Assembly: GCA_034638255.1 (NCBI GenBank)
Contig: JAWPGT010000026.1
Coordinates: forward strand, 1 to 64,000
Direction: 5' to 3'
DNA from: Coprinus comatus
Taxonomy: Eukaryota > Basidiomycota > Agaricomycetes > Agaricales > Agaricaceae
Length of the DNA stretch: 64,000 nt
Position 1 is the stretch's first letter. Every line of letters begins with the position of its first letter. Positions 19,667-46,837 of the stretch are shown piece by piece. The notes beneath the pieces are model-generated. The model was given only the letters and a program-made list of their open reading frames with translations, ran no database searches and was not told where the DNA came from. The position numbers and the translations under genes are program-made.

Positions 19667-21169
19667 TGTATGTAGAGGTCGGTGAAATGCTATTGGGATT
19701 GGAAGGCTAGTACAGAAGTAATGCGGGTGTGAGAAGTTTACAGAAGAAAATGGTCGATCGCCGAGCCGGCTAGCTACTTAACCATTGACAAAAGGCTGTT
19801 TTGAAACTCGACCAGTGGCGCTATTTCCAGACATACGCATAAGAGAAAACTCTAACATCCTCCTAATGTTGCCAAGTAGCCTGAGTATCGTGTATTGAAG
19901 CTTCGAAGACTGTATCATTATGACAATGGTTTTGCAGGAGGGATTCGTGGTAAGAAAGGGTGACGTCACGAAGTGACCTGCCGCTGGAGTTTAGCTCATG
20001 CGAATGGGTTAGAAGGGCCAGAACACATTACATTTATTTGTAAAGAACAATTATCACATCATTACTATATGTTCAATCGCATTTACATATCTCTGAGCCT
20101 CTCACAACATCAATCGCCCTGTGCACCTTACCAGAACCCACTAACAAGTGGTAGGTCAGGTTTACAGGGACGAGGTCTTAATGGTTCGGGATATGAGTGA
20201 TTGCACTATAAGCATCAATTAGATCATGAGAAGGTAGGCCTCACAATGTATAGAATATGCTATTTTTTCGTTCCTCGGTAGGAATGTAATTATTCCGGTG
20301 TAGTAAAGTGTGTGGGTTGAAGGAGTTGGATCGAGTGTGGATGTTTGAATATTTGATCTTTTACTTTAGGGGCATCAGTCTACCAGATAAAACGGCATCA
20401 ATATGAGTGACACCTACCGACAAGACAAAGAATGGAGTAAAGATAGGTATCGCGTGTCATTAACATTGAAAAGATCTAGCTAAAGCTATATCAATATACG
20501 AATCGAATGAAAGATAAACAACTCACTCGTGGTTTGTTGAATTTGAGATCTACAATATATGAATGATTGAAATAAAAGAGGAGATTGATGTTTAAGCAGT
20601 AAAATATAACGTAGATAAACTCGGAGATGACTGGATGAAAATAAGTGAAATGAAATAAGAGAAATTTTGCAATATAGTGCAAGAGAAAAGATGAGTGAGA
20701 TATACAAAATCGCAAGAGTGATAATGTATGGTTTATTTCGAGAAGTTGGTTTTGGTGGGAATGTATATGGCTGAGAATGTAGAAGCAACAAGAGTGAACG
20801 TCGCGTGGGTGGAATAGATGCGAGATTTTTATCGCGGAGGTTTGTTTGGACGTAGGGTTAGGAAAAGAGTATTCTCTCCTGCGAAGAGAGGTTTCTGGAG
20901 AGTAGAGGAACAGTTATCCAGATTTAAGAGGACTGAGAGTCGAGCTGACATACGTTGAGTCACCAACGACAAGGAAAGGACGAGAGGACGGATATTTTTG
21001 GTACAAGAGAACTAAGCGGATAGAAGGTCGAATCCGAATATTATATAGAAGCGACTCGTTGCGAGGATATTCTCGAGGAGTTGATGTGTTTGAGATGTAG
21101 ACAAAGATAGAGTGGTGGTATTTAACAGAGAAAGACAGTTTCCTGGATAAATGCAACATCCAAGTAGAA

Positions 21170-21950
21170 GCGAGATTGATGTGACGACCTTGACATATAG
21201 AAGGCAAAGAGAACAGGAAAGTATGGAAGTCGGGTTGGAGAAAAGGAAGGAATAGACTGTGGGGAGGCCTCAGGTGCCAATAGAAAAGACAAATACAAAT
21301 CTAGAAAGCTCAAACAAAATTCCAGATAGTCGGAAGAACGAGAAAAAGGAGGGATATCAGAAGGCTCTTTATGACCTTGATCCGGAAACGTTGGCAAGTA
21401 ACACCCATATAAACTGGGTCCATGTGCTATGACCTTGAGATATGGAACGAATGTTGAGGAGATCGTAGTGGAAGGGTAATGGTATTCCAGAAAGATGTTG
21501 TACTAGATCAGTGATCCAGTGCTTGATGACCATTGAAGTTGAACATTGGCTTGAATGCAAGTCGAGGAGAGATGAGGGGAACATCAGGAAGACAAGGGTG
21601 TTGGGTTCAAGAAAAGAAAGGGATAGATTGAGCGAGGACGTTGGACGACAAATACAAATCCAGAAGAAAGAAGAGACAAATGCAGAGAGATGGATAAGGA
21701 TGTCGGGTTCAGGAGAAAACGGATAGACTGTGATGGGACACTGGATGTTGATACAAAGGGAATGAAAGGAGAGAGAAAAGACAAATCCAGAGTGATAAAT
21801 CCATAGAAGAATGTTCAACAAGGGAGTCGGAAACAAAACCAGAGAGAGATATAGAGGGACCCAGAGAAAGACGACAAATCCAGACCGAGACACAAGAGAG
21901 AGAAACCCAGAGAGAAATGACAAACCCAAGAGAAAAGACAATTGATAGAC
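21170..21950. repeat. GA-rich low-complexity tract, left arm
   Basis: Strand-asymmetric purine-rich DNA with loosely repeated AGAGAGAAA and ACAAATCCAGA words. The long open frames on the minus strand here (Ser/Leu/Phe-rich) are a by-product of the composition and are not called as genes. The mirror copy is at about 44790-45560. Confidence 0.6.
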
Positions 21951-22333
21951 ATGTGACAGAATAAAACCGATGCTCGAAAATTGGAATTTAGATACTGCAT
22001 ATATGCAGACTAAAATGAGAATAGCTACCTTGTTGTATGCGTTAAGAATCTTTCAACCTCCCCTACAGTTCTTCCACCTTTGTGTAGGAAGAAAACGACA
22101 GAAGATCGCATGAACTGAGGATGCCAGCCAATAGCGATGTTGGTGATCGCCCTTCATGGAACTTGTTTGCCGGTTCCCGAGTGCATGGTCGGAAGACTAG
22201 ATCACCATATAATACATAACCGACGTAGGTCAGTCATGGAGATGGGAGTGTAGAATGTGTTGCGATGTTATTTGAAATTCTGTTTATGAAAGATTTGGTA
22301 AAAAGCGAAGAAAATAACGATGTAACGCTTACC

Positions 22334-22834
22334 TCAGTCCCAGACTGAGAATGAATCGAGCTGTATGAGTGTGGTTAGTATGTAAAACTGAGGCCAGAAC
22401 ATGATACCCACGCTGAGGGCCCCAACCAATGGAAGTTGGATCAATCCATCGAAATCTACAGAGGCCAGCCATGAAGTGATGTTGGAAAGTCCAAAAGGGC
22501 GTGACGAGGGTTTGGCATTGTTCTTAGCTTCTGTGTCGATGCTTTTGGTCTCGTTGATCAGCGTTGCGGTCGAGCTGTAGAGAGTGTATGTAGTGACCGG
22601 CAGAGGAAGAAGGTCACTCATGAGAACATCGTCATCGACATTGATTCCTCCAAAGGTAACATCAACGGCAACAGGACTTCCCATCATGAAATCCCCATCG
22701 CAGTCAAATTCCACTGTGGGATACTCCATGTCAACATCGTCGTCGCATACTAGGCGATTCTATCAGTAATAAATCTGATCTCATAGGGAACATAACCTAC
22801 CTGACATTGGTGAGCCTGGAGAATCCACTTCCAT
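22334..22834 (-). CDS. Acidic hypothetical protein, left-arm copy (149 aa)
   Basis: Exons 22834..22801 and 22749..22334 on -, the mirror of 43895-44395 and apparently identical in protein. The N-terminal half is rich in Asp and Glu (VCDDDVDMEYPTVEFDCDGD), the C-terminal half is more hydrophobic, with a possible membrane stretch VGALSVGIMFWPQFYILTTL. No family recognised. The biased composition and the intron (phase kept) favour a real gene. Confidence 0.5.
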
Positions 22835-22850
22835 TGAAGCTGGGAAACAA

Positions 22851-23336
22851 TCAACATAGGGGAACAAAAGATAAGACGACGACGAAGGATGAATTACTCT
22901 GAACCCTGTAACTCTTCCCTCTTGGCTCTACAAGTACACGCTAGTCAACAAAACCATTTTCTCACAGCAGAGAAATAAACTCACTATTGGTGGTCGGGAG
23001 CCTTGCCCATTTTCATAAATTTAGTTGTAGAGTGACGACATTCTTAAGGTTGACTTGTGCTCAGTATCCTAGAGACGTTGTAGATGTACACCCATACGTA
23101 CTCGGAACCACTTTCTTCATAGCTACTATTTTGTGCTGGGAGATCTTGACAGCAGCACGAGCTGAGTGAATCGCCTTGAGGTGACGCGTCATCTTCCCAT
23201 TCTCCAGCGGGGAAGATCGAGCCCGCTTGTTGAATGTGGTCGAAGGACGTATGGTACACTGATATCCAAGATAACTCTGCTGTAAGGCACCAGGCCAGTA
23301 CACAACAGAGGGAACTTGAGTATAAATGTAATCCAT
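22851..23336 (-). CDS. Hypothetical small protein, left-arm copy (tentative)
   Basis: Mirror of 43394-43878. The single-base difference between the arms (about 23013) falls in the proposed third intron and would not alter this model. See the right-arm entry for the exon reasoning. A TATA box lies about 100 bp upstream of the start in both arms. Confidence 0.3.
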
Positions 23337-24244
23337 TGAGAGAAATATTGTTGGGATTGTTGTTTGACTTGTTGCGACGATGTATTGGTTACAGTTCAAG
23401 ATGAAGGAAGCTCCGTTTGTAACGAGAAGGCCTTATATAGCTGTCGAGGAAAACGCGATCGGTGAAATCAACAATCGACACCGAGGGGATCGTAATTGAA
23501 CAAGGATACCGCCTACACCAGAAATCAAGCCATAGATAGATAGAAGGTATTGAAAGTGTTTGACGCGTTATTTTTGGCAACTGGTGCGCTTTTGGATTGC
23601 ATTTCTGGACATTGACAGAGTATATGTTTATCGAGTATGTTATTCTTGGAAAGGATCGGCGGATATTTATAACCACCCCGTATGACGCATGTGACAATGA
23701 CCAGATGGCAATAAGCTCTCCTAAAAGCATTGAGAATCAATCTTCAAGACGCGGTCCTCAAGCTTGAGTAACAACCTGGATTTTCTAGCATTCCAGGTCA
23801 ACAGACAGGAGTAGTTTTGTTGCGAGAGGTGCAGAGGTTTACACTTGGCATACTACAATGACCTCTTCATAGGGGTCACTGGTAATGATCCTTGCCAGAC
23901 GTCAGACGTGTGTACTTTGCAAGAGTCGTTTAAGGCTGGAGAGAGTTGGTAGTAACATGTGACATGGTCGGCGCGTTACCAACCTGCCAGTCCATTCTTT
24001 CGACTCACAAATTGCGGCCATTAAATGCTAGTATCCTTCCACTTGGGAAGCACGTAAACTGCCTAAGTAGATTAGACAGAACATCCCTACGCTATTCGAC
24101 ACCTGCCTCTCAGCCTCCAATCCCATCAATACCTCGTCTTGACCTTGTTCCGGGTGACCACACTTATTTGATTCTAATTGCCACCATCCTCGCCCTTTCC
24201 GATATTCTCAATGCCGAGATTCTGATTTTGGAGACTGTAAAGTA

Positions 24245-25815
24245 TATATTGAGAAATTCATAGGGGTTGTAGATAGAATTGTCAGAATCATCGACCCCAA
24301 CCTCCTTAGAAGGGAGGTGAACAAAAGAATCTTCGTGTTCCAAGGAGACTTCTTGACGCAATTCTTCATGGATAACGCCCTAGTCTCCAATGTTCTCTTA
24401 AGAGATAGGAATCTTGTTATTGCTAGATTCGTCCAATGGTTCAAATATTGAAATATTGAAGGAAGGCCTATGCCGATGATAACAGATACCTCCAAGATGT
24501 GCTGATCCTCAAATTTAACCAAGGTAGGTCCTTTCCTTGAGGGCGAAAGAAGAATAATTCCTTCCCTTCCAAAACTTGATAGCTCTTTCGACTATCCTTA
24601 TCTTCAAATAAAAAGCAGTAAAGAGTTAAAAGGTACTAATGTTAGGTTTTTCCCAGATATCTCCTTATCTTATCCATCTTTCCTAATCACTCCACTTATC
24701 TTATCCTGATGTTCTGGACTCTTTCATAATGTTCTTTTCCCTTATTATGTTACTTACATATTCCCTTTGTGTGCTGGCAAGGGTCCTTATTGTTCTCCCC
24801 TTTTGGTTGTTCTTTGTTCTGGTAGATATATAAGTCCCTCATGTCTTAGCCAAACCATCCAATCAATTCCCTTCTTTCTGTGTCTGTGTCTGTGTCTGAG
24901 CTTTATTCTCTCTCATTACTCCTCACATTCTCTTCACTACTCTCTACCATTCTGACAACTAAAACGGTTCTTATATTTTTCTTGCATTCACCTTCTTGGG
25001 TGTTTCCGTTTGCTTAATGACATCCATGACATCAGCATCAATCTCTTCAATACCGACATCTTTCTCCTTGGAAATCTCAACCACTCTTCGACAATTTTTT
25101 TCAAAGTATCCTAGTTGGCCTCTGAGTTCATGGCTGTGCCAATCCGGGATGAACGATACAAAGATAAAGGGGTGGACTGAGATAAATGTTGAATCATTTT
25201 CTCACATCGTGAGAGATGGGTAATTCCATCCCAACTTCCAACTTCCCACTGTCAATAGATCAATCTGATGTTAAGTACCATAATAGAATCATCTTGAAAA
25301 CATATGTCTACAATAATGGTAGTACAAGTTAGTTAATTTGACATTCATTACATGGGAGAATAAACCTCACCTCAGTGTCAAGAAATGTAAAGGTAAACAC
25401 TGAGGTACACGAGTGAAAATTTACATCTTAACAACCATCGAGTGACAAACAAAGTGCGGAACATTTGAAGATAAACAAACATAGAAAAAGGAAAGAACAT
25501 TTACAAATCGGGAAGTCTGTAACATGTTCTTGGTACCACCTTCCAACACATCTTGTTCATGAAACTCATGTAGGTGGTAGATGATCATGTATAGAGTATG
25601 TATATAAATGTATATAATGATCTTATGGAATAACACTTTGAAGTTTTGGGAGAGGAGACTGCATCATGTCCATTTAGTTTAGAAGAGGGAGAATGTTGGA
25701 TATGGAACATGATGTGGATGAGCCTGGCCAGCTGCGATGCAATGGAAGAACGATGAGAGCTCACCCAGTCGTTTGGAGTTGCACCTGATGTTGGGGGCAG
25801 GAGACTGTTATAAAT
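24245..25815. other. Spacer DNA between left arm and Gypsy-1, with a promoter-like duplicate
   Basis: No complete gene recognised. 25175-25290, read on -, is homologous to 40740-40870, the region just upstream of the intact F-box gene (shared words ACAGTGGGAAGTTRGAAG, CCATCTCTC, GTGAGAAAA). Here the sequence after it is not F-box-like but keeps a short Lys/Glu/Asp-rich open stretch on - (about 25000-25100). 24871-24898 is a short TCTGTG repeat. The region may be the decayed partner of the right-hand F-box unit. Confidence 0.45.
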
Positions 25816-25905
25816 GGATACCACTAGTCATTTCAAATAGGTACATACATATGTATCTTACTTGGCACATATGTCTGTACCTATTTGAAATGACTAGTGG
25901 TATCC
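25816..25905. repeat. 90-bp perfect hairpin (29-bp arms, 32-nt loop), MITE-like
   Basis: GGATACCACTAGTCATTTCA at 25816 onward is the exact reverse complement of the end at 25905; all 29 bp of the arms (25816-25844 and 25877-25905) pair. The loop is AT-rich. The Gypsy-1 LTR begins at the very next base. It could be a miniature inverted-repeat element or a stable hairpin target; no coding content. Confidence 0.8.
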
Positions 25906-26528: not shown

Positions 26529-27746
26529 TTACTTCCTTCCTTAGGGGGAATGTCCTCATTCTCAACTTCAGAGGTCTCTGCAAGGGGAGCCAGTGATGTT
26601 GGCCTCGGCGATGGGGTCGTAGTCTTCTCCAAAGTCTTGTCCAAGGTCTTCTTGATTTGATCCAGTACTCTGGCATGAGCGGCGGCGTGTTTGGTGAGAG
26701 TGGGAATGGCATCGATGATGTCTTTCACTGCAAGATCCAGTCGGAATCGGGGTACGGGGTCCTGTCGATCGTGAGCGGCATATCTCTGGTGGTTCATGAA
26801 TGCTAGGACGTGTTGTCCCTCGATTGATTGGTCGTTGTGTCAGTTGCTGTTGTAGAAATGTCCTATCTCCTTGTAAAATGTTACTGTTCGTTTTATCGGC
26901 AGGGCAGAGTTTAGGGTTTTGGATGTAGTGCTCCTCAATAACGGAGGTCAGGATGGTGTTGGAAGGGAGGCCTTTGTACTTGTTGCGGGAACAATGCTTG
27001 GCATAGTGGCCTGGAGCAGTTTGCTTACAGTGGTTGCAGAAGTAACTTTCGCAATGTGGTAGGAAGTGGTTATGTCCGTTACATGCAGGGCACCGACGCT
27101 GTGTGGATTTAATTGGTGGCATGTATGGGGTCTGGGGACATTGGCTGGGAATGTTTGGTGGGATAGTAGGTTGGTCAGGTAGTAGCTTTCCTGAGTGGTC
27201 AGGTTCCAGGCCCATTGTTCGAGCATGTAGTGGTTCCTGAGGAGGGGTGTGAGTCGCTTCCGAGTCTCCAGAAAGGGTTCCATCCCTTCGAGTCTCAAGG
27301 TTGCTAGTGCTAACATATCGTGGTCCAAAACTAACGCTGAAGAGCGAAGGTCTTGAATTTCGGGATCTGTCAAGATCCTGGAAAAGCTGGTGGAGGCTAG
27401 CATGCTCTGGTTGTGAAAAACCATTCAATTGGAGTTTTTGACAAGTGTGGGCCAAGGTGTCCCAAAGGTACAGTTCCTTAGCTCTTTGAGGAAAGTAAGC
27501 AGATAGGTCTTCCCGAAGGGTATGAAGGAGTGTGCGGCGTTCAGAGTTGTTTCGATGAACGGATTCGAGGTCAGCGATGTATGTTTCACATGATAGTCGG
27601 AATCGAACAAGCTGAGTGTCAGGGGAATACGGGAGAGGGATGTGTGTGGTGGAACCATTGGCAGGAGCCAAGGTTTGGGTTGGGAGTACGGTGGAGGAGG
27701 CATTGGCGATAGTAGTGATGGGTGTATTGGGAGGAGAGTAGAGCAT
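26417..27746 (-). pseudogene. Gypsy-1 downstream ORF (env position) with zinc-knuckle domain
   Basis: Starts 17 bp after the pol stop. The N-terminal part is Pro/Thr-rich with an ESVHRNNSERRTLLHTLRED helical stretch, then a Cys/His cluster (RRCPACNGHNHFLPHCESYF, followed by CNHCK and a GHYAKHC) that resembles a double zinc knuckle. Near 26,830-26,880 the frame changes; the second frame then reads DLAVKDIIDAIPTLTKHAAA, a coiled-coil-like segment, and continues across the polypurine tract into the 3' LTR, stopping near 26417. The equivalent LTR end in the copy at 38608-39242 keeps the same reading. Role unknown; a displaced gag-like or nucleic-acid-binding protein is one guess. Confidence 0.65.
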
Positions 27747-27763
27747 TGAACTGGGGAATTGGA

Positions 27764-30700
27764 TTAGAGTCTGTGTCTCTTTTTATAATCTTTTAGGATT
27801 GCTCCTGAATTAGTAAGATTCGATTCAGGCTCCCAAGAATCTTCCGTGGAAGAGTATCCTTTCCAATGAACAAGATACCGTCTTGTCCTCGGTGTTCCTT
27901 GGTGGTTAAGGATGTTTTCGACTTCGTATTCTTCTTCTCCATTTACAATGTCTGGAGGTGGTGCTGTAAACATTTTGCCATATATGTCATTTTCTTTGGC
28001 AGGAGTGAGGAGTTGGATATGGAATTTGTTGTGGATCCTCCACGTCATTGGTAACTCTAGCTCATAGGTGGTTGTTCCTATTTTGCGTAGAATTTTGAAG
28101 GGGCCTTCTCGGCGCTATGCCATTTTCTTCGATTTGTATTTGATTTGGAGGTTTCTGTTATCGAGCCAGACCCGTTGTCCTGGTTCTAGGGTTGGTAATG
28201 GTCTGTTCGATCGAGCGGCCATAAGTTGACACATATGTTCATGAGCTTCTTGAGCCTGTTCTCTAGTTTGCTTGAGGTATTTGAATCGGGATGAGATAGA
28301 TGGGATGTTTGAAGGTTCTTCCGTAGTATGGAATGTTTTTGGTGCATAGCCATACATTAGTTCGAATGGGGTTTGAGTGCGACCAGCATGGGTGCGGGAA
28401 TTGTGTGTAAATTCAAGGATAGGCAGTGCTCGTGCCCAGGAGTTGGGATTTGCAGAGCAATAGATGGATAGGAATAGTTCGATCTCTTGATTGAATCTTT
28501 CGGTTGATCCGTCGGATTGAGGGTGATAGGTGGTCGAGTATGCAGGTTCTATATTTAGTTTGGAATAGAATTCTTGCATTGACTTAGCAATGAATTGGGG
28601 TCCTTGATCTGAGATAACCTTTTCGGGCATTCCGAATTTGGCAAATAACCGTTCTATCAATAGCTCGGCTATGTCATCGGCTGTGGCTGTTTTCGCAGTA
28701 GGAATAATTAATATCCCCTTTGTAAGTCCATGGTCCACTATGGACAATATAGAGTCATAGGGGCCGTCTGGAGGTAGATCCGTTATCATATCCATGGAGA
28801 TTTGGGTGAATGGACGGATGGAAGCAGGTCCTTTTATGGGTTGTAACAGTGCTTTGAGTGGGTGGTGGTTGATCTTGTATTGTTGACAAGTTCCACAACC
28901 TTGAACGTAGTTGTGTACGAACGAGTTCATACCGGGCCAGTAACAGTATTGCTTTAATTTTTGTAAAGTTTCTGTAATTCTTGGGTGTCCAGTGGTGATA
29001 TGGTCGTGTACTCTTTGTAAGAGGGATCGTCGAAGAAGGAGATCGTCGGGGATGACAATCTTATTCTGATAGTGGAGGAAACCATCGTCATCGATGACGT
29101 ATGTTTTGGGAATAGATGAAGACCGTTGTTGAGTGACGTCCTTTATTTTCTGACCAATGAGGTCATCAATAATGCAGATTGACGTTTCTTGTAAATCTGT
29201 GGAGAATAATGACGGGGGTAGTGCAGTTACATCATGGTTATCATCTCCAATAGGTATGTGATCAGGTCTTCGGGATAGATGATCAGTGGGACCATTTTTC
29301 TTGCCAGGAATATGTTGGATTTCAATGTTGAATCGTTGCATGTACGCTGTCCATCGTGCTTGTTGTCGGTTGAGATCTTGAGGGTTCTTCCAACGTTTGA
29401 GGTTTTCATGATTGGACCATACAATGGTTTTGTGTGGTGATCCTTCGAAGTAGTGTCTCCACTCTGTGAGTGCTCGAATTATTGCGAGAAATTCCTGCTC
29501 TGAGCAATGATAATTTCATTCGGCGGGATTGAAACTTCGGCTGTGATAAGCAACTGGGTGCTTGACTCCATTTGTGTCTCATTGTAATAGGACAGCTCCT
29601 GTTGCGTATAGAGATGCATCACATTCTATTTCAAATGGTTTAGTTTGATCGGCAACTGTGAGGATGGGCTGTGTGAGAAATCGCGCTTTCAGATCTTCAA
29701 ATGAAGACTGGCATTCGGATGTCCAATCAAATACTTTAGTATTAGACATAAGAGCGTTAAGCGGATGTGCGAGGTCGGAGTAGTTTCGAATGAATTTGCG
29801 GTAGAAGTTGCAAAATCCAATGAATTTGCGAACGTCTCGTACTGATTTTGGTACGGGCCATTGTTGGATGCCTTGTAATTTTGCGGGGTCCATGGCGACG
29901 TTGTTGGGAGTGATGATTACACCGAGATACTCAAGGTGTTGTTTTTCAAATTCGCATTTCTCTGTTTTGAGAAATAGATCATTCTTCAGGAGGATTCGTA
30001 GTACTTCTTTAGTAATATGGCGAAGTTCCTCTTTAGTTTTGGCATGAATGAGGATATCATCCATATAGACAATGACTTCTCCATCATCTATCAGCTTTCT
30101 AAACAATGAGTCCATCATTGCTTGGAAGGTAGCTGGCGAATTGCACATTCCAAAGAACATGACTGTGGGTTCGAAAAGTCCTTTAGTTGTTTTAAAGGCT
30201 CCTTTCCATTGATCTCCATCTTTTATGTGGATATTGTTATATCCTAGACGAACATCAAGTTTTGTGAACCATTTCGAATCTCTCAATTTATCGAGTATTG
30301 ATGAGATGAGGGGAATGGGATATGCGTTCTTGATGGTGTGTTGATTTAGATATCTGTAATCTTGACAGGGGCGTAGTTTTCCATCTTTCTTTCCTACAAA
30401 GAAGAAAGGGGAGGCCATAGGTGATTTTGAAGGTCGAATATAACCTTTTTCAAGATTTTCTTTCAAGAAGGTGTCAAGTTCCTTCTCTTCTAGAGGTGAT
30501 AACCGATATGGTTTAATTGAACGAGCTTCGAATGAATCTTCAAGTTCAATTTTATGATCCCAAGGTCAGGTTTGAGGAAAGTGTTCTGATGCTTTCTTGT
30601 CAAAGAGTTTGTAGAATTCGGCAAACTCTTTAGGAACGACTTTCTTAGGGTTGTCTTGTTTCTTGTCACCAAATTGTTGAGCAATGGTGTTAGAGGATGA

Positions 30701-30965
30701 TGTTTTGACATTGATTTCAACTGAGTCTTCCTCGTCGAGGCAGATTTTGTTCAGTTGTGTGTCATCATCTGTAATGGTTTGAATTAGATCAAGGTATATC
30801 TCGTCGCTTGATTCTTCTTCTCTCCATTTGAGTAATCTGTCAGACCAATTGATGTCTGGATTATTTTCCTGTAACCAGGGGAATCCTAAAATGATTCTAG
30901 GTTTTCTGAGACTGATTATTTTGGCTTCGATGGTTGTTTGTCGACCATTAACTGTACAGTTCAAT
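27764..30965 (-). pseudogene. Gypsy-1 pol (protease remnant-RT-RNaseH-integrase-chromodomain)
   Basis: Protease: only the end remains (PRIILGFPWLQENNPDINW); the active-site part is lost at the Gypsy-2 junction. [32 protein letters not shown] and [12 protein letters not shown], catalytic aspartates present. RNase H with [16 protein letters not shown]. Integrase: zinc-binding GHPRITETL...CGTCQQYK, core SMDMITDLP, ISDQGPQFIA and HPQSDGSTERFNQE. C-terminal chromodomain: ENILNHQGTPRTRRYLVHWK, GYSSTEDSWEPESNL. In-frame stops are at 30566-30568 (TGA), 29579-29581 (TGA), 29516-29518 (TGA) and 28115-28117 (TAG); three sit where the family has Arg or another CGA codon. Confidence 0.87.
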
Positions 30966-31330
30966 TGTAAGGGCGACTCACGTCGGCAACAAATGGCCTG
31001 ACAGCTAGCGAGGAATCCAAAGTTATATTTGATCGGAAACATATTACAGAGCAGATACAACATACCTAGCAAGGAATCCAAAGAGAAAGAGTTGGGGATT
31101 CACTCACACAGGCTACACACAATATATACTACTATACAAACAGAGATGCCAGCTATTGTCCAGAGGGATGTCATAACATGGACAATGGGAACAATGGGGG
31201 ACGAGTCACATGAGGGGGCAAGTCGTGAAAGCGCGAAGTCGGGAGGTGTTCCGATGGAAGTCAGAACATCGGAGGGTCGGTCGGTAGTCGGTGTGTCAGT
31301 GTAAGGGTCGGTGAGGAAGGTCCCCTTACA
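30966..31330 (-). repeat. 3' LTR of Gypsy-2
   Basis: 365 bp with matching termini: TGTAAGGG on the left and CCCTTACA on the right. It interrupts Gypsy-1 protease coding sequence at TCAAT/TGTAAGGG (30961-30965 is the candidate target duplication). On the element strand it follows the Gypsy-2 chromodomain end after removal of the Copia insertion. Confidence 0.75.
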
Positions 31331-31398: not shown

Positions 31399-31616
31399 TG
31401 TTAAAACAAGAGTGTAGCATGTATGCTAAGGTAGGTACGACTTAGACTTACTGAGGGTGGTTGTTGAGGTAGAAAAGAACTTAAGTATATAATGCAACTA
31501 CTACAAGGTTTATATACGTTAATGCAATGGTCCGTGCGAGAACATATTTGAGTCACATGTTCATCTAGCGTAATGCCATTAGAGAATGTCATTGTAGAAC
31601 TAATAATAGTTCAACA
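31399..31616 (-). repeat. Copia-1 3' LTR
   Basis: 218 bp, TGTTAAAAC...GTTCAACA on +. It differs from the other LTR at three positions, each a CG in one copy and a TG in the other. Confidence 0.93.
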
Positions 31617-31652
31617 CTCCCCTGAATTCAAACATGGCAGCTTAGAAGCGCC

Positions 31653-34600: not shown

Positions 34601-37292
34601 AAAATCTTTCAAGTGCCGCAAAGGCATCAGATTTGGCTCGTAAGAGGAGGATCCAGGCATGGCTAGAATAGTCATCATAGAACGTCATTGCCCACTTGTA
34701 CTTGTGATACGAGGCAACGGGGAATTCTAGAAGATCACTGTGGATCAATTCTAGAAGATCACTGTGGATCAATTCTAGAAGATCACTGTGGATCAATTCT
34801 AGAAGATCACTGTGGATCAATTCTAGAAGATCACTGTGGATCAATTCTAGAAGATCACTGTGGATCAATTCTAAAAATGTCTTCGCTCGTGTCGAAGAAG
34901 GATGATGTGCATCATCGGACATTTTGCCATGAGCACAACCATCACATACTTGACGGGAGATAGGAATGTCAAACTCGGGTACTTTTTCCGAGTGTTTTGG
35001 GAGTTGTCGCAATACTTCCTTTCCAGGATGTGCTAATCGACGGTGCCAAAGATCATAAACAGAAAGTTTTGATGCGCAATAAGATAGCACCTGGTTCACA
35101 GTATAGTGACACACCAACCTAGTGTGAACATGGTGGAGGGCATCTTCCATAACTTTAAATGTTGTGATGCGTGATGCATGCATGAACAATTTTCCGTTTG
35201 AACGAAATATGTTGGTTCTCTTTAAATTTGACTCACTCCTCATTCCTTGCAGCCATAAGGTGCCAGGTGAAATGATTCTAGTGGAGAGAGACTCTAAATA
35301 ATAGACCGGATACAGTGGAGTCATTCTAGTGACTCTGTCTACTTCGTGTTGGAAGAGAACTTTCCCACGACCTTTTATGGTTATGAGGTTGTTGCTGGCA
35401 TCTCTGACACCACCAAATTCTCCATTCTCTAACTCGATAAAGTCAGCTATATGTGGTGTGCAATTAAAGCTAGCGCCTGAATCAAGGAGCCAAATAGCAG
35501 ACTCTCTAGCATAATTAGGTTTACTTTTATCTTCGCAGAAGTTGCATAAGCAATCATCAAGATGATTCGATGATTCATCACTATTCTTAGGATCTTTTAG
35601 ATATTTCGTTGGTAAGACAAAACGATCACAAATAGAAACAGGAGAAGGGATCATATTGAAAACAGGAGTACAAACAGTAGTAGATGTAAAAGGAGAACTC
35701 GTAATAGTCCGACTAATGTCCGGCAGTCCGATATGACGCTCTAGAACATGGGGTCTGATGGAGCCATTGGTTCGTCCCCCCAAGCAAGCTTGGGGGCATC
35801 TCTGTAAGTTCCATTTAGTAATGAAGAATTCTTGAGAGAAGAAAGGAACGTACTCATTATACCATCCATCATCGACCTCGTAGTCAGCATCTGCGTCAAA
35901 GTCCGGATCATTCATATAGGCATCAGCCTCAGCGATTGCATCAGGAACATCGGAAGGTGGGACATAAGAAGGAGACTGAGATCGACACGTGGGGGACCCA
36001 GGTGTAGAAACTGAAGACGAATCAACTTCCTCTTCAGGAAGGATTGTAGCAACCATCACATCAAGGGATGGTGGAGGTGACGGGGGAGAGGGTTCAGCCG
36101 GGCCGAAGCCAAGGCAAGCACCCATCCTTTCAAAGACCTCTGCCTTCTTTTTCTGGTACCGGGTACAACCGACCAGGTGTCCAACCGGAGGAAGAAGAGT
36201 GGCACGAGGAGCAACATAAGGCTCAACTCCGTGCACGACAACTTCATCAGCAGCCTTTTTCAAGGCTACTGCCTTGAGTTGGGGATCAGTAGTCTTCATC
36301 CTCTCAACGAGAGAACGAGTGGAGGAAGGTTTGTTAGTGGGAGTCGTGAAGGACTCCAGAACAGCGGGTGACAGGATCATGTCGACATTACCATCTTCTC
36401 CTTCGGCTTTGTTTGCCTTGTTGCCTCCACATTTTCCATGTCGATGCTTCTTCTTTTTATCTTTATCCCCCCCAGAAGCATCACCAGAACTGGAGTTCTG
36501 GTTCTGATTTGGTCTAGAATTAGACCCAGAAGCATTCTGTTGTTGTTGTTGGGGCTGCTGGGGAGCGCCACCAGAGGGTTTAGAATAGGGCTTTGCACCC
36601 TTGTAGTTTTTAATGCCGGTGGAAGCGGCACGAGAAGCAGAAGCAGCTCCACGGGAATCTCGCCATGCACCCATAATTGCATCGGAGACGATCTGAACCG
36701 TGAGGTTCGAGAGGGAGTTACCATATTGAACAAGGAGGGCGGCACGAGTAGCACTCCATTGAGGGGGAATGCGAGTCATTAACATCAACGCACGGAGGAT
36801 ACCAGGGATGTTAATTGGGGGCGAGGCTTGCTCGAGCTGCATGAAATAATTTCGGAAGGTAGAGATCTCCTTAGAGGGATCATTCACACCAGATAACCGA
36901 AAAGAATCTGCAGAAGCATACAGCTCGTAGGCTGCACCTGCCGAAAAAGTGCCATATACTCGTCTCAGGTGTGTCCAGAGACCATCAGAGGTTGTTTCAC
37001 CATGCCGGAGCATGTCATCGCTCAATCGGGAATTTAACATCCCAAGGGCAAATGCCTCACAATTATCGAACTTTCGAATTTCATCGATGTTCGTGGGGGG
37101 TACCATAGCAGTGGTGCCAGTTGCGGGGGAACCACCAACAGCTGCAGGCCTTGCGGCGCTGCCGTCGATCATTCTCGCTACACACCATCCATCCATGTGG
37201 ATCATATTGGCAATTGACAAAACACGTGCTTTCCACACTTGGTAGTTAGCAGTGCCTGTGAGAACTGGGATCGAGGGGATCAAAGCGGCCAT
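31653..37292 (-). pseudogene. Copia-1 gag-pol polyprotein, one nonsense codon and altered RT active site
   Basis: Start at ATG 37292 (MAALIPSIPVLTGTANYQVW). Order: gag with Gln/Asn-rich and Lys-rich tail (no clear CCHC knuckle), protease LLDSGASFNC, integrase zinc region (HRRLAHPGKEVLRQL...CDGCAHGK), integrase core with an expanded octapeptide carrying the first Asp, then IRTDNGGEYVSKQF and HQQNGRAERLN, long Pro/Ser linker, RT and RNase H. RT has VNVKTAYLYGKL (codon at 32928-32930 is Asn where the family has Asp) and YVDNVLFMG (32661-32663 is Asn in place of the second Asp of YVDD). A TAG at 31986-31988 splits RNase H; the end MTELGLHNNEPMDICGDN continues in frame. Otherwise about 1,870 codons are open. 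Confidence 0.9.
34724..34871 (-). repeat. Six tandem 24-bp repeats inside Copia-1 integrase
   Basis: Unit CTAGAAGATCACTGTGGATC plus AATT (24 bp), six times, in frame, giving LELIHSDL repeated six times. A normal integrase has this segment once, as the strand holding the first catalytic Asp (IHSD). Confidence 0.92.
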
Positions 37293-37576
37293 GAGTGATG
37301 TTTGGAGATAAAATTCTACAACAAAACATGTGTCAGATCTATGAACTAAAGCTGCACTACATGCACTATGTTCTACAGAGCTATGTGCTGCCCGTCTAAC
37401 CGAGTACGGTAAGGGTATGCATAGAGTACACTGATGGGTCAAACGTCTCGAGTGAGCGGAACTCGGACTTCCCTCACAGGTGAATCCAGCTTCACCCTCG
37501 AGCTCAGTGCTGCACGATGAGTAGTACTCATCAAGTGTGCATCGTGAGTCGTACAGGCTAACCGGGGCCCATAACC

Positions 37577-37794
37577 TGTTAAAACAAGAGCGTAGCATGT
37601 ATGCTAAGGTAGGTATGACTTAGACTTACTGAGGGTGGTTGTTGAGGTAGAAAAGAACTTAAGTATATAATGCAACTACTACAAGGTTTATATATGTTAA
37701 TGCAATGGTCCGTGCGAGAACATATTTGAGTCACATGTTCATCTAGCGTAATGCCATTAGAGAATGTCATTGTAGAACTAATAATAGTTCAACA
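37577..37794 (-). repeat. Copia-1 5' LTR
   Basis: 218 bp, partner of 31399-31616; on the element strand it is followed by GGTTATGGGCCCCGG, the likely primer-binding region. Confidence 0.93.
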
Positions 37795-37799
37795 GGAAT
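37795..37799. repeat. GGAAT target-site duplication, right of Copia-1
   Basis: Exact repeat of 31394-31398. Confidence 0.85.
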
Positions 37800-39242: not shown

Positions 39243-39477
39243 GCGGGTGCCAAGCTGTAGTCGCAGCAACCTTGATGCCTAAGAGTCGGTACAACTCCCG
39301 GGTGAATTCCGACACAAACTGCGGGCCTTGGTCGGAGACAACACATTGAGGTAGGCCGTGGAGCTTCCAGATGTTGTGGAGGAAGAGTCGGGCGACACCT
39401 TCAGCAGTGCAAGTCATGTGGGTCGGCAGGAAATGAACTCGTTTCAATACTGAATCAATGACTGTGAACACTGTGTC

Positions 39478-40099: not shown

Positions 40100-40733
40100 T
40101 ATTATGACCACAAACCATTAAGCTGAACACTCCTGGAACTTAAACGCTAGAGTGCAGTCGTGTAGGAATGTGCATTCAATAAACACTCTGCTGCAATCTC
40201 AAGGCCTTTCAACCTAGTGACCAAGAGGTATGGAGACAGAGATGTATAAGGGATACAACAGAAGAGATTAAAGCTTAAGGCTTTAATCGTCTAATACATC
40301 GAGTATTTATACTATTCTAGGGATGTACCCAATAATAGCTACTAACTAATTATATCCTTACTACTCGTCATTGCTTTATAATCTACTCCATAAACAATGC
40401 TAGAACTGTCAACAGAAGTAGGTGAGACATCGGGGTTGGGGACTATTTACTCCATACACAATGAAAGATTAGTCAACAGGAGTAAAATGACCAAACTGAT
40501 AAGTAATACTGGAGCCAGAGAAATGTAACCTTCTAAATATAAATGGAAACTTATACTTAGTTCGATGTTAGGTCATAGTGGTGTCTTGTAGACCACAGTG
40601 GGGCTTGGAGTCTCTTCATCATACGATGTCATCCATGACAGAGTCGTCTTGGGGAATGAGCTCAGGGAAGATGGCAAACAGATCTTCTTCCATAGTAGTG
40701 GTGTGGGCCGGTGGATTGGGTGGGCTCGTAACA
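40100..40733 (-). mobile_element. Solo LTR of family a, diverged
   Basis: 634 bp, TATTATGACC...CTCGTAACA (first base pair changed from TG), in the Gypsy-1 LTR orientation and clearly more diverged. Flanks GTCCA (40095-40099) and GTCCG (40734-40738) look like a 5-bp duplication with one mismatch. Confidence 0.72.
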
Positions 40734-40914
40734 GTCCGTGTTTAACATCAGATTGATCCATTGACAGTGGGAAGTTAGAAGTTGGAAGTTGGAATTGCCC
40801 ATCTCTCTTTGATCATTGATTTGATCATCATTCATGACGTGAGAAAACGATCCTCAACGATTCACTGACATCTATCTCTATCTTTGCGTCACCCATCTGG
40901 ATCCAGATAACTTG

Positions 40915-42462
40915 ATGAAGACCACCATCGCCCAAGCCTGCTCTCGCTGCGGCTCCCCGTGTCTGTTATGCCCTGACAATCCCCAGTCATTCCCACCCGA
41001 GTCGTCTGATGACGAGATCACGTATATCAACGAGGAGTGCGCTGTAATCGATGAGCAAATTCGATTGCTCAAGGGAAAAAGGGCTATTCAGAGACGCAGG
41101 TTGAATGAGTTACACTCGAACACCAGGTCTCTTCCACCAGAAACTCTTTCCGAAATATTTCGACACATATACCATGATATCAACGACAAACAGTCTCTTT
41201 TCCAAGTGTTATCCGTTTGCAGTCATTGGTATCAAACTGCGTGCTCAACCCCCGACCTATGGTTAAAGCTCTCACTATCATTGAAACCCAGCAACTTGGT
41301 GGACAAGGCCAACCTACTGCGATTTTGGCTTTCCAACTTGGGATCAGTACCACTCAAGCTAGAGTTACTGAATTGTCGTCACTCACGTCCTAGTTTGGGT
41401 CCAATAATGACAATCCTTTCTGAGAAAGACAACGCCAGGAAAATCCAAGGACTATCATTTCATTATCCACTTCCCTCCTGCATGTCTGTTATCACACAGA
41501 ATTGTGTCAACCTCGAGCAACTTGAATTGCTTGGATCATATTCATATGCGTCATCATCATCAACACTTGGTGGAATTAATACTACTGAAGCTCAACACAT
41601 CGTCAATCTCGAAAACCAAACCCAGCTTCAGACCCTTACATTACAGGACTGGCGGCACGGTTCTTTCAGTATTCCATCTACTCTCAATATCACAACCCTC
41701 AGGATTCAAGATAGTGAAGGTGTTTTTTACCTCGATCTTCTTGATCAGTGTCAACATACCCTCATCAACTTGTATATGTCCTTCTGGGCAACCTATACCC
41801 TTTCCAACTACCCCAACGAAAAACCCCCTGTCACCCTTCATCACCTGCAGACGCTTCATCTGGAACTTTCAGTCCATCTACCTGCTCTGTTTGGTAATTT
41901 GAAACTCCCTACCATTAAAAATTTCGGGCTGGAGGTCAACATTACTGCACAACGGTATCACGACGCGGATGTTGATGTCGCTAGGATGTGTGAATTACTG
42001 CCAAACATACACACTACACTCACCATAGCTGTTGATGGAGAGGTAAAACCTCCTGACCCGCGTTGGTTTCCTTTCCTTGAACACTTGCTTGGCCATGCAG
42101 ATCAGATCCAGAAACTCATTATTAGTACTAGTGGCTTCCAAAATTTTGGTAATAGCCAGTTCACAACACATCTCCTCCAACTTCTCTCTACAACAAAATC
42201 ATCTGATCCTGAAACCATAGTCCTTCCATACCTATGTGAACTGAAAATTCACGATCGTCGCTTATTCCCATATTGGTTCGATTCCCTGCTCACAATGTTT
42301 CGAAACAGGAGGATTGGGCTTCATCAGCACTTCCATTTGGAGCTGTTGACACTTCACGAACGGCAGAAAGAGCTGCTTGATAATCTTGTAAATCAGTTGA
42401 TAGAAGAGGGTTATTTGATATCAATCGACATTCAGATGGTGGACCTATCTCCAGTTATGTAG
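40915..42462 (+). CDS. F-box protein, intact single-exon copy (515 aa)
   Basis: N-terminal Cys pairs (CSRCGSPCLLC) may bind zinc; an acidic/helical linker (DDEITYINEECAVIDEQIRL) leads to the F-box at about residues 70-115 (LPPETLSEIFRHIYHD ... VCSHWYQTACSTPDLW). The rest is a long Leu-rich region of beta/alpha repeats typical of Agaricomycete F-box proteins. Such proteins recruit substrates to SCF ubiquitin ligases via Skp1; the target is unknown. No intron is needed. The stop lies 23 bp before the right inverted-repeat arm. It has a pseudogene relative at 11846-13357 and relics after 48.8 kb; the upstream region is duplicated at 25175-25290. Confidence 0.85.
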   Translation: MKTTIAQACSRCGSPCLLCPDNPQSFPPESSDDEITYINEECAVIDEQIRLLKGKRAIQRRRLNELHSNTRSLPPETLSEIFRHIYHDINDKQSLFQVLSVCSHWYQTACSTPDLWLKLSLSLKPSNLVDKANLLRFWLSNLGSVPLKLELLNCRHSRPSLGPIMTILSEKDNARKIQGLSFHYPLPSCMSVITQNCVNLEQLELLGSYSYASSSSTLGGINTTEAQHIVNLENQTQLQTLTLQDWRHGSFSIPSTLNITTLRIQDSEGVFYLDLLDQCQHTLINLYMSFWATYTLSNYPNEKPPVTLHHLQTLHLELSVHLPALFGNLKLPTIKNFGLEVNITAQRYHDADVDVARMCELLPNIHTTLTIAVDGEVKPPDPRWFPFLEHLLGHADQIQKLIISTSGFQNFGNSQFTTHLLQLLSTTKSSDPETIVLPYLCELKIHDRRLFPYWFDSLLTMFRNRRIGLHQHFHLELLTLHERQKELLDNLVNQLIEEGYLISIDIQMVDLSPVM

Positions 42463-43290
42463 TAACGTGAATGTTGTGCTGTATCTACTTTACAGTCTCC
42501 AAAATCAGAATCTCGGCATTGAGAATATCGGAAAGGGCGAGGATGGTGGCAATTAGAATCAAATAAGTGTGGTCACCCGGAACAAGGTCAAGACGAGGTA
42601 TTGATGGGATTGGAGGCTGAGAGGCAGGTGTCGAATAGCGTAGGGATGTTCTGTCTAATCTACTTAGGCAGTTTACGTGCTTCCCAAGTGGAAGGATACT
42701 AGCATTTAATGGCCGCAATTTGTGAGTCGAAAGAATGGACTGGCAGGTTGGTAACGCGCCGACCATGTCACATGTTACTACCAACTCTCTCCAGCCTTAA
42801 ACGACTCTTGCAAAGTACACACGTCTGACGTCTGGCAAGGATCATTACCAGTGACCCCTATGAAGAGGTCATTGTAGTATGCCAAGTGTAAACCTCTGCA
42901 CCTCTCGCAACAAAACTACTCCTGTCTGTTGACCTGGAATGCTAGAAAATCCAGGTTGTTACTCAAGCTTGAGGACCGCGTCTTGAAGATTGATTCTCAA
43001 TGCTTTTAGGAGAGCTTATTGCCATCTGGTCATTGTCACATGCGTCATACGGGGTGGTTATAAATATCCGCCGATCCTTTCCAAGAATAACATACTCGAT
43101 AAACATATACTCTGTCAATGTCCAGAAATGCAATCCAAAAGCGCACCAGTTGCCAAAAATAACGCGTCAAACACTTTCAATACCTTCTATCTATCTATGG
43201 CTTGATTTCTGGTGTAGGCGGTATCCTTGTTCAATTACGATCCCCTCGGTGTCGATTGTTGATTTCACCGATCGCGTTTTCCTCGACAGC

Positions 43291-43298
43291 TATATAAG
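43291..43298 (+). promoter_or_regulatory. TATA box of arm gene
   Basis: TATATAAG, 96-103 bp upstream of the ATG at 43394; mirrored in the left arm at about 23432-23439. Confidence 0.5.
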
Positions 43299-43393
43299 GC
43301 CTTCTCGTTACAAACGGAGCTTCCTTCATCTTGAACTGTAACCAATACATCGTCGCAACAAGTCAAACAACAATCCCAACAATATTTCTCTCA

Positions 43394-43878
43394 ATGGATT
43401 ACATTTATACTCAAGTTCCCTCTGTTGTGTACTGGCCTGGTGCCTTACAGCAGAGTTATCTTGGATATCAGTGTACCATACGTCCTTCGACCACATTCAA
43501 CAAGCGGGCTCGATCTTCCCCGCTGGAGAATGGGAAGATGACGCGTCACCTCAAGGCGATTCACTCAGCTCGTGCTGCTGTCAAGATCTCCCAGCACAAA
43601 ATAGTAGCTATGAAGAAAGTGGTTCCGAGTACGTATGGGTGTACATCTACAACGTCTCTAGGATACTGAGCACAAGTCAACCTTAAGAATGTCGTCACTC
43701 TACAACTAAATTTATGAAATGGGCAAGGCTCCCGACCACCAATAGTGAGTTTATTTCTCTGCTGTGAGAAAATGGTTTTGTTGACTAGCGTGTACTTGTA
43801 GAGCCAAGAGGGAAGAGTTACAGGGTTCAGAGTAATTCATCCTTCGTCGTCGTCTTATCTTTTGTTCCCCTATGTTGA
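43394..43878 (+). CDS. Hypothetical small protein, right-arm copy (tentative, 98 aa)
   Basis: Tentative exons 43394..43439, 43472..43628, 43728..43744, 43802..43878, phases kept. It starts MDYIYTQVPSVVYWP; the main exon reads FDHIQQAGSIFPAGEWEDDA and a Cys-rich SSCCCQDLPA. The first intron would be only 32 nt, and other joins are possible, including a longer product running into the next reading frame. A well-placed TATA box supports transcription. No family recognised; the gene may be specific to this lineage. Confidence 0.3.
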
Positions 43879-43894
43879 TTGTTTCCCAGCTTCA

Positions 43895-44395
43895 ATGGAA
43901 GTGGATTCTCCAGGCTCACCAATGTCAGGTAGGTTATGTTCCCTATGAGATCAGATTTATTACTGATAGAATCGCCTAGTATGCGACGACGATGTTGACA
44001 TGGAGTATCCCACAGTGGAATTTGACTGCGATGGGGATTTCATGATGGGAAGTCCTGTTGCCGTTGATGTTACCTTTGGAGGAATCAATGTCGATGACGA
44101 TGTTCTCATGAGTGACCTTCTTCCTCTGCCGGTCACTACATACACTCTCTACAGCTCGACCGCAACGCTGATCAACGAGACCAAAAGCATCGACACAGAA
44201 GCTAAGAACAATGCCAAACCCTCGTCACGCCCTTTTGGACTTTCCAACATCACTTCATGGCTGGCCTCTGTAGATTTCGATGGATTGATCCAACTTCCAT
44301 TGGTTGGGGCCCTCAGCGTGGGTATCATGTTCTGGCCTCAGTTTTACATACTAACCACACTCATACAGCTCGATTCATTCTCAGTCTGGGACTGA
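43895..44395 (+). CDS. Acidic hypothetical protein, right-arm copy (149 aa)
   Basis: Exons 43895..43928 and 43980..44395; 51-nt intron with phase kept. Starts MEVDSPGSPMSVCDDDVDME. Asp-rich first half, hydrophobic possible membrane segment near residues 120-140. The reading frame stays open upstream of the ATG (SSSYLLFPYVDCFPAS), so it may be the last exon of a longer gene with 43394-43878. Confidence 0.5.
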
Positions 44396-44789
44396 GGTAA
44401 GCGTTACATCGTTATTTTCTTCGCTTTTTACCAAATCTTTCATAAACAGAATTTCAAATAACATCGCAACACATTCTACACTCCCATCTCCATGACTGAC
44501 CTACGTCGGTTATGTATTATATGGTGATCTAGTCTTCCGACCATGCACTCGGGAACCGGCAAACAAGTTCCATGAAGGGCGATCACCAACATCGCTATTG
44601 GCTGGCATCCTCAGTTCATGCGATCTTCTGTCGTTTTCTTCCTACACAAAGGTGGAAGAACTGTAGGGGAGGTTGAAAGATTCTTAACGCATACAACAAG
44701 GTAGCTATTCTCATTTTAGTCTGCATATATGCAGTATCTAAATTCCAATTTTCGAGCATCGGTTTTATTCTGTCACATGTCTATCAATT

Positions 44790-45560
44790 GTCTTTTCTCT
44801 TGGGTTTGTCATTTCTCTCTGGTTTTTCTCTCTCTTGTGTCTCGGTCTGGATTTGTCGTCTTTCTCTGGGTCCCTCTATATCTCTCTCTGGTTTTGTTTC
44901 CGACTCCCTTGTTGAACATTCTTCTATGGATTTATCACTCTGGATTTGTCTTTTCTCTCTCCTTTCATTCCCTTTGTATCAACATCCAGTGTCCCATCAC
45001 AGTCTATCCGTTTTCTCCTGAACCCGACATCCTTATCCATCTCTCTGCATTTGTCTCTTCTTTCTTCTGGATTTGTATTTGTCGTCCAACGTCCTCGCTC
45101 AATCTATCCCTTTCTTTTCTTGAACCCAACACCCTTGTCTTCCTGATGTTCCCCTCATCTCTCCTCGACTTGCATTCAAGCCAATGTTCAACTTCAATGG
45201 TCATCAAGCACTGGATCACTGATCTAGTACAACATCTTTCTGGAATACCATTACCCTTCCACTACGATCTCCTCAACATTCGTTCCATATCTCAAGGTCA
45301 TAGCACATGGACCCAGTTTATATGGGTGTTACTTGCCAACGTTTCCGGATCAAGGTCATAAAGAGCCTTCTGATATCCCTCCTTTTTCTCGTTCTTCCGA
45401 CTATCTGGAATTTTGTTTGAGCTTTCTAGATTTGTATTTGTCTTTTCTATTGGCACCTGAGGCCTCCCCACAGTCTATTCCTTCCTTTTCTCCAACCCGA
45501 CTTCCATACTTTCCTGTTCTCTTTGCCTTCTATATGTCAAGGTCGTCACATCAATCTCGC
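44790..45560. repeat. CT-rich low-complexity tract, right arm
   Basis: Pyrimidine-rich with recurring TTTCTCTCTGG and TGGATTTGTC words; mirror of 21170-21950. One of the two arm indels lies here. Confidence 0.6.
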
Positions 45561-46837
45561 TTCTACTTGGATGTTGCATTTATCCAGGAAACTGTCTTTC
45601 TCTGTTAAATACCACCACTCTATCTTTGTCTACATCTCAAACACATCAACTCCTCGAGAATATCCTCGCAACGAGTCGCTTCTATATAATATTCGGATTC
45701 GACCTTCTATCCGCTTAGTTCTCTTGTACCAAAAATATCCGTCCTCTCGTCCTTTCCTTGTCGTTGGTGACTCAACGTATGTCAGCTCGACTCTCAGTCC
45801 TCTTAAATCTGGATAACTGTTCCTCTACTCTCCAGAAACCTCTCTTCGCAGGAGAGAATACTCTTTTCCTAACCCTACGTCCAAACAAACCTCCGCGATA
45901 AAAATCTCGCATCTATTCCACCCACGCGACGTTCACTCTTGTTGCTTCTACATTCTCAGCCATATACATTCCCACCAAAACCAACTTCTCGAAATAAACC
46001 ATACATTATCACTCTTGCGATTTTGTATATCTCACTCATCTTTTCTCTTGCACTATATTGCAAAATTTCTCTTATTTCATTTCACTTATTTTCATCCAGT
46101 CATCTCCGAGTTTATCTACGTTATATTTTACTGCTTAAACATCAATCTCCTCTTTTATTTCAATCATTCATATATTGTAGATCTCAAATTCAACAAACCA
46201 CGAGTGAGTTGTTTATCTTTCATTCGATTCGTATATTGATATAGCTTTAGCTAGATCTTTTCAATGTTAATGACACGCGATACCTATCTTTACTCCATTC
46301 TTTGTCTTGTCGGTAGGTGTCACTCATATTGATGCCGTTTTATCTGGTAGACTGATGCCCCTAAAGTAAAAGATCAAATATTCAAACATCCACACTCGAT
46401 CCAACTCCTTCAACCCACACACTTTACTACACCGGAATAATTACATTCCTACCGAGGAACGAAAAAATAGCATATTCTATACATTGTGAGGCCTACCTTC
46501 TCATGATCTAATTGATGCTTATAGTGCAATCACTCATATCCCGAACCATTAAGACCTCGTCCCTGTAAACCTGACCTACCACTTGTTAGTGGGTTCTGGT
46601 AAGGTGCACAGGGCGATTGATGTTGTGAGAGGCTCAGAGATATGTAAATGCGATTGAACATATAGTAATGATGTGATAATTGTTCTTTACAAATAAATGT
46701 AATGTGTTCTGGCCCTTCTAACCCATTCGCATGAGCTAAACTCCAGCGGCAGGTCACTTCGTGACGTCACCCTTTCTTACCACGAATCCCTCCTGCAAAA
46801 CCATTGTCATAATGATACAGTCTTCGAAGCTTCAATA

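What the first reader, a model, noticed from the sequence alone, without database searches (positions are those of the whole stretch)
19893..46837. Near-identical 4.35-kb inverted repeat enclosing 18 kb of nested elements
Arms 19893-24244 and 42486-46837 are mirror images with only two single-base indels seen. Such palindromic architecture is rare outside sex or mating regions and telomeres, can flip the spacer by recombination, and is prone to gene conversion. The spacer holds an intact F-box gene and a stack of retrotransposons. It could also be a local assembly product.
Basis: seen in the sequence. Interest (0 to 1): 0.78.

Follow-up and report, generated by a model that had tools for sequence, protein, structure and literature searches.

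The report
Gene-converted inverted repeat in a fungus
Two mirror-image 4.35-kb stretches in a fungal chromosome are nearly identical most likely because one copy recently overwrote the other by ordinary gene conversion inside a much older, decayed inverted duplication: a clean case of a known process.

Summary
The repeat is real at the stated coordinates: 19893-24244 and 42486-46837 are inverted copies of 4352 bases with two 1-base indels and one substitution. It is the young core of an older inverted duplication whose mirrored flanks are 75-89% alike. A second contig, C79, matches C26:1-72974 in order and is probably the other haplotype. It has a left copy, but on the right only the outer ~83 bases of the arm. 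At sites where C79's two copies differ, the window's left copy is left-type at 65 of 65 sites outside the arm (19240-19892), then right-type at 7 of 8 inside (19893-19975); the right arm is right-type at the same 7. This indicates one-way copying from right to left, not a simple reciprocal inversion. The spacer holds an open F-box-like frame and nested retrotransposons, as stated. STE3 and homeobox matches lie on other contigs. Whether the spacer flips is untested. No reads were available; C79 as haplotype rather than segmental duplicate is inferred. Verdict: real; a known process in a new place; moderate interest.

The parts
19893..24244 (+). left arm of the near-identical inverted repeat (inferred recipient of the conversion)
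   Evidence: right-type at 7 of 8 diagnostic sites in its outer 83 bases
42486..46837 (-). right arm of the inverted repeat (inferred donor type)
   Evidence: its outer flank matches the second contig's right flank at 93-100% in 11 of 12 alignment blocks with more than 20 compared sites, the outermost block at 77%
19184..19666 (-). left-flank frame of 160 aa that looks like a small single-pass membrane protein (by eye, not computed), mirrored paralogue of 47816-48358
   Evidence: 29 of 58 left-right differences on third codon positions, 6 of 8 gaps multiples of three
47816..48358 (+). right-flank paralogue of the same frame (180 aa), outside the converted core
   Evidence: no Pfam match
13472..13576 (+). 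outermost left remnant of the old inverted duplication (mirrors 50378-50482 at 83%)
50308..50482 (-). outermost right remnant of the old inverted duplication (81% to the transposon-free left side on C79)
25142..25287 (-). fragment resembling the upstream region or 5' end of the F-box-like frame (82% to C79), part of it mirrored to 40742-40807 (91% over 66 bases): inner left remnant of the old duplication
40912..42462 (+). open F-box-like frame (516 aa), 23 bases from the right arm's inner edge
31399..37794 (-). Copia-type LTR retrotransposon: 218-bp LTRs differing at 3 of 218 sites, the same 5 bases on both sides, 1870-aa open frame
26568..31081 (-). Gypsy-type retrotransposon frames in several pieces (integrase and reverse transcriptase matches at 28115-29341 and 29579-30466)
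13577..19148 (-). DNA transposon with about 75-nt terminal inverted repeats (91%) between two TTA copies, absent from C79 (precise empty site with one TTA); Plavaka-like match only at E 0.087, below the cut-off

Best explanation
An old inverted duplication (left unit about 13472-25287, right unit about 40742-50482) had decayed to 75-89% identity. In the haplotype represented by the window, the left unit then received about 4.35 kb of sequence copied from the right unit by non-reciprocal homologous recombination (gene conversion). The outer end of the copied tract lies between 19892 and 19900, inside sequence that both units share. SHOWN: near-identity of the arms, older mirrored flanks, and the switch from left-type to right-type at 19893. 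INFERRED: that the whole tract came from the right arm (diagnostic sites cover only its outer 83 bases), that C79 is the other haplotype, and that the inner end was set either by the limit of homology or by end joining after strand-annealing repair.
For: Arms differ at 3 places in 4352 bases, while mirrored flanks 19241-19866 and 47579-48286 are 75% alike with gaps (87-89% in ungapped blocks). At ungapped sites where C79's two copies differ, the window's left copy is left-type at 60 of 60 (19240-19865) and 5 of 5 (19866-19892), then right-type at 7 of 8 (19893-19975); the right copy is right-type at 52 of 60, 5 of 5 and 7 of 8. The window's left side matches C79's left side at 99.93% over 1-13576 and at 96-100% in the eight 150-column blocks from 19163 to 19867; inside the arm 26 of 29 blocks with data up to 23897 are at 85-99% and three at 59, 69 and 79%. 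C79 matches C26:1-72974 in order, including a precise empty site for a transposon.
Against: C79's right copy stops matching about 83 bases into the arm, so only 8 sites test direction inside it, and at 1 of the 8 both window arms are like C79's left copy (a change on C79's right copy would explain it). Five further sites printed at 19984-19990 were left out as lying beyond the homology; there the left copy is left-type at 2, right-type at 1 and neither at 2. The part 21805-23453 is 91-99% like C79's left copy, closer than old paralogues should be if the outer gene (83-89%) is the yardstick. At the inner edge, homology to C79's left copy ends near 23958-23970, some 275-286 bases before the arm ends, so a tract bounded by homology is not shown there.
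Confidence: 0.74

Rival explanations
1. Recent inverted insertion: a break inside the left unit was repaired by one-ended copying of 4.35 kb from the right arm, finishing with non-homologous joining near 24244-24249. The inner part of the left arm would be new sequence there, not an overwritten older copy.
For: The outer edge lies in shared sequence, but the inner edges share no alignable sequence beyond 24248/42482; a query of 23900-24260 found no match on C79 at E 1e-3.
Against: C79 has a left copy reaching to about arm base 4066 next to the same left flank, so a left copy existed there already; overwriting needs fewer steps. Inner neighbourhoods hold transposons in both contigs, which can hide the original edge.
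Confidence: 0.15
2. Assembly product: the two arms really differ by several per cent and the assembler used one consensus twice, or placed the spacer wrongly.
For: No reads are available; two of the three arm differences are single-base indels in short runs, as read errors often are.
Against: Both outer flank contexts are found independently on C79. The window's left sequence changes type between 19892 and 19900, where C79's left and right copies differ on both sides of the switch; a collapse would need true near-identity there. At 23010 the right arm agrees with C79 and at 21902-21906 the left arm does, so each arm carries a private change.
Confidence: 0.09
3. The arms are a working flip switch: recombination between them inverts the 18-kb spacer, as at some fungal mating loci.
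For: Length and identity of the arms are ample for crossing over; the F-box-like frame lies in opposite orientation on C79 relative to the shared flanks.
Against: C79 has no full right arm, so it is not the flipped form; the two F-box-like genes are only 77% alike, and opposite orientation is also expected of mirrored paralogues. A single reciprocal crossover at the outer edge would leave the right arm left-type; it is right-type at 7 of 8 sites.
Confidence: 0.05

Closest known systems
Arm-to-arm gene conversion in palindromes of mammalian sex chromosomes (PMC8981503; search listing with start of abstract only)
   Same: near-identical inverted arms explained by conversion between arms
   Different: here one tract in a decayed duplication, no evidence of repeated conversion, no sex chromosome, no conserved gene shown in the arms
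Sclerotinia sclerotiorum MAT inversion with 250-bp inverted repeats around 3.6 kb (PMC3574095; passages incl. part of the abstract)
   Same: inverted repeats around a gene-bearing spacer in a fungus
   Different: no mating-type gene found here, arms 4.35 kb, spacer 18 kb, no evidence of flipping
[quoted passage not shown] passages)
   Same: inverted gene copies as possible conversion templates in a basidiomycete
   Different: that is a mating locus and conversion is proposed there; here diagnostic sites show a direction, and mating-type matches lie on other contigs

Membership tests
Gene conversion tract between inverted paralogues | outer edge: near-identity ends abruptly inside older, more diverged homology | tested here: met
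Gene conversion tract between inverted paralogues | inner edge: near-identity ends abruptly inside older homology | tested here: inconclusive
   no alignable homology directly beyond 24248/42482; only small mirrored fragments further in
Gene conversion tract between inverted paralogues | non-reciprocal: recipient carries donor letters, donor unchanged | tested here: met
   left copy switches to right-type at 7 of 8 sites, right copy is right-type at 7 of 8; only the outer 83 bases are testable
Invertible (flip) switch bounded by inverted repeats | both spacer orientations occur | not testable with these tools
   one window copy only; the second contig lacks a full right arm
Mating-type-linked palindrome | STE3 or homeobox mating genes in or near the repeat | tested here: not met
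   25 STE3 matches on C8, C3 and C40; 3 homeobox matches on C4 and C9; none on C26 or C79
Subtelomeric repeat | telomere repeats at the contig end | tested here: not met
   no run of three or more TTAGGG units in C26:1-124000 or C79; other motifs not tested, and contig ends need not be chromosome ends

The most novel reading that the evidence does not exclude
The arms sit in a block of about 43 kb (19.9-62.6 kb) in which the two probable haplotypes differ by several per cent and by many structural changes, while the sequence on both sides is 99.0-99.9% identical. The block, with its mirrored small genes, F-box-like genes and a duplicated family of long frames, could be a locus kept polymorphic by selection (for example for self/non-self recognition), in which conversion between inverted copies makes new alleles.
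Probability: 0.08. Interest if true: 0.65.

Novelty: new member of a known kind. Interest (0 to 1): 0.36.

Why it matters
It is a well-marked natural example of gene conversion between inverted copies, apparently away from the mating loci of a basidiomycete-type fungus, with direction and one tract edge readable to within 8 bases thanks to a second, probably allelic, contig. It also shows that a near-perfect palindrome need not be young as a structure: here an old one was refreshed.

Tried and rejected
Mating-locus explanation: rejected, the 25 STE3 and 3 homeobox matches lie on other contigs. Subtelomere: no TTAGGG runs. Arms as copies of one spread transposon: of 14 matches in the assembly 2 are full length and the other 12 are pieces on C79 or short fragments elsewhere, among them one 76% piece on C124. 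Arms kept identical for a protein: a candidate frame (22334-22759, 141 aa) shows no codon-position bias against C79 (3, 4 and 3 of 10 differences); against C124, 8 of 15 gaps over 22201-22985 are not multiples of three and no phase stands out consistently; it has no Pfam match at E 0.1 and none of 174 candidates scored E 0.001 or better; so it is probably not a conserved exon. The SKICH match of frame 23044-23388 (E 0.012, below cut-off) was disregarded. A simple reciprocal inversion at the outer edge does not fit the right arm's letters. The protein search with the F-box-like frame gave 2 unnamed proteins on short contigs and no species. No Rfam match at gathering scores and no tRNA in the window (ARAGORN ran with the bacterial code). 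Literature: searches returned no paper; some searches returned the works cited or others not used; no search was made that could show this locus to be unpublished. Doubling of the whole assembly was checked at two places: a 3.1-kb piece of the HD locus and a 3.6-kb piece around the C3 STE3 gene each have one match, so if the strain carries two nuclei, those parts are collapsed or purged.

Full report
OBSERVATION. 19893-24244 and 42486-46837 are inverted copies of 4352 bases with three differences: a 1-base indel at 21902/44827, a substitution at 21906/44823 and a 1-base indel at 23010/43720. Compared with the second contig C79, the right arm is the changed one at 21902-21906 and the left arm at 23010. 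In the 35.7-Mb, 134-contig assembly (window = C26:1-64000) 2 of the 14 reported matches to the arm are full length.

SETTING. The genome looks like that of a basidiomycete: 25 exon-level STE3 matches on C8, C3 and C40, two homeobox matches on C9 in opposite orientations 1.1 kb apart, and a Plavaka transposase match on C79. That these marks point to basidiomycetes is recalled knowledge, and the species was not identified. None of the STE3 or homeobox matches lies on C26 or C79 (pheromone genes were not searched), and no TTAGGG run was found in C26:1-124000 or C79.

AN OLDER INVERTED DUPLICATION. Outside the arms the mirror symmetry continues at lower identity: 19241-19866 against 47579-48286 (75% with gaps, 87-89% in ungapped blocks), and 13472-13576 plus 19149-19227 against 50308-50482 (79-83%; one 81% match when the transposon-free left side on C79 is used). 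The mirrored outer pair is an open frame that looks like a small single-pass membrane protein (by eye); 29 of 58 differences fall on third codon positions and 6 of 8 gaps are multiples of three, so it behaves as coding sequence. Inside the spacer, 25142-25287 resembles the upstream region or 5' end of the F-box-like frame (82% to C79), and 25211-25274 is mirrored to 40742-40807 (91% over 66 bases). The near-identical arms are therefore the core of a larger, decayed inverted duplication.

THE SECOND CONTIG. C79 (101,528 bases) matches C26:1-72974 in reverse: 99.93% over 1-13576; 94.0, 84.4 and 93.9% over 19149-20454, 20737-21688 and 21684-23958; 94.6, 97.7 and 98.7% over 47024-47555, 47821-48799 and 49046-51684; then pieces at 87.7-98.2% over 52514-62214, partly at shifted places; 99.6% over 62621-69972 and 99.0% over 70172-72974. 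C26 begins inside C79, and C79 ends inside C26. A transposon at 13577-19148 with about 75-nt terminal inverted repeats is absent from C79, which has a precise empty site with one TTA. Another contig, C69, matches C26 directly at 94001-95811 (100%, same orientation) and 96120-100000 (98%, reversed); that it runs parallel to C26 to about 126 kb is inferred from pairs of equal-scoring matches. C26:74001-82000 has no near-identical partner over most of its length. The simplest reading is that C79 and C69 are pieces of a second haplotype. Against that, a piece of the HD locus and one STE3 locus are single copy, so the assembly is not doubled in general; a segmental duplication in a haploid is not excluded. 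The argument below needs only that C79 is a sister copy of the region.

DIRECTION OF COPYING. C79 has a left copy with its left flank, and a right flank that holds only the outer ~83 bases of the arm. Columns without gaps where C79's left and right copies differ were used; gapped columns were dropped. The window's left copy is left-type at 60 of 60 sites in 19240-19865 and 5 of 5 in 19866-19892, then right-type at 7 of 8 in 19893-19975. The window's right copy is right-type at 52 of 60 (7 left-type, 1 neither), 5 of 5 and 7 of 8. The switch lies between 19892 and 19900. The one exception inside, 19970, has both window arms like C79's left copy and is most simply a change in C79's right copy. 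Five further printed sites at 19984-19990 lie beyond the shared stretch and were not counted (left copy: 2 left-type, 1 right-type, 2 neither). The windowed profile agrees: left copy against C79's left copy is 96-100% in eight blocks from 19163 to 19867, then 85-99% in 26 of 29 blocks with data inside the arm and 59, 69 and 79% in three. So sequence of right type was copied onto the left copy, and the right copy was not altered in return, as far as the outer 83 bases show. A plain reciprocal inversion at the outer edge would have left the right arm with left-type letters. For the rest of the arm the donor is inferred: 21805-23453 is 91-99% like C79's left copy, which is closer than the outer gene's left-right identity (83-89%) would predict.

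INNER EDGE. The arms stop at 24244/42486 with no alignable homology beyond 24248/42482. C79's left copy matches the arm only to about 23958-23970 and is followed by sequence with 98% inverted copies (65015-65190 and 64518-64693). Both spacers hold transposons, so whether the tract ended at the limit of homology or by end joining cannot be told.

WHAT THE ARM HOLDS. A purine-rich strand (62-74% purine in the six 250-base steps of 20393-21892) and a part at 22201-22985 with a 76% relative on C124. The candidate frame there lacks the marks of a conserved exon. No function of the arm is shown. The effect of the event is most likely neutral homogenisation (inference).

SPACER. An open F-box-like frame (516 aa) lies 23 bases from the right arm. 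A Copia-type element at 31399-37794 has 218-bp LTRs differing at 3 of 218 sites, the same five bases on both sides and an open 1870-aa frame. Gypsy-type frames are in pieces at 26568-31081. If rates are similar, the conversion (3 of 4352) is younger than the Copia insertion (3 of 218); this is inference from few changes. C79's interval differs: Tc3-type and Plavaka-type transposase frames and another F-box-like frame.

COMPARISON AND VERDICT. Conversion between inverted arms is well known, for example in mammalian sex-chromosome palindromes (PMC8981503, listing and start of abstract), and has been proposed for pheromone gene copies in Cryptococcus (PMC12510652, passages). Inverted repeats that flip a spacer are known at the Sclerotinia MAT locus (PMC3574095, passages). 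The window is a new, clearly marked case of the first kind, on contigs without mating-type matches. Flipping is untested. The surrounding block of strong haplotype difference is the part most worth following.

Noticed in passing
window 19893-62620 versus C79: Block of about 43 kb where the two probable haplotypes differ by roughly 1-16% in aligned pieces and in structure, between flanks 99.0-99.9% identical.
   Followed up: partly
window 13577-19148: DNA transposon with about 75-nt terminal inverted repeats and TTA flanks, present here and absent at a precise empty site on C79.
   Followed up: partly
window 34723-34873: A 24-base unit repeated 6.3 times in frame inside the Copia-type open frame, giving an eight-residue repeat just before the integrase core match.
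   Followed up: no
C69 (about 84.6-117.9 kb) versus C26 (about 94-126 kb): Another contig matching C26:94001-95811 at 100% and 96120-100000 at 98%, probably a further piece of the other haplotype.
   Followed up: partly
window 20393-21892 and its mirror in the right arm: Purine-rich strand over 1.5 kb of each arm, with weak internal repeats.
   Followed up: partly
window 52095-54533, C26:68033-70172, C79:2784-4722 and 41883-44324: A family of long frames without Pfam match, hydrophobic in parts by eye, duplicated in and around the block and differing in place between the contigs.
   Followed up: no
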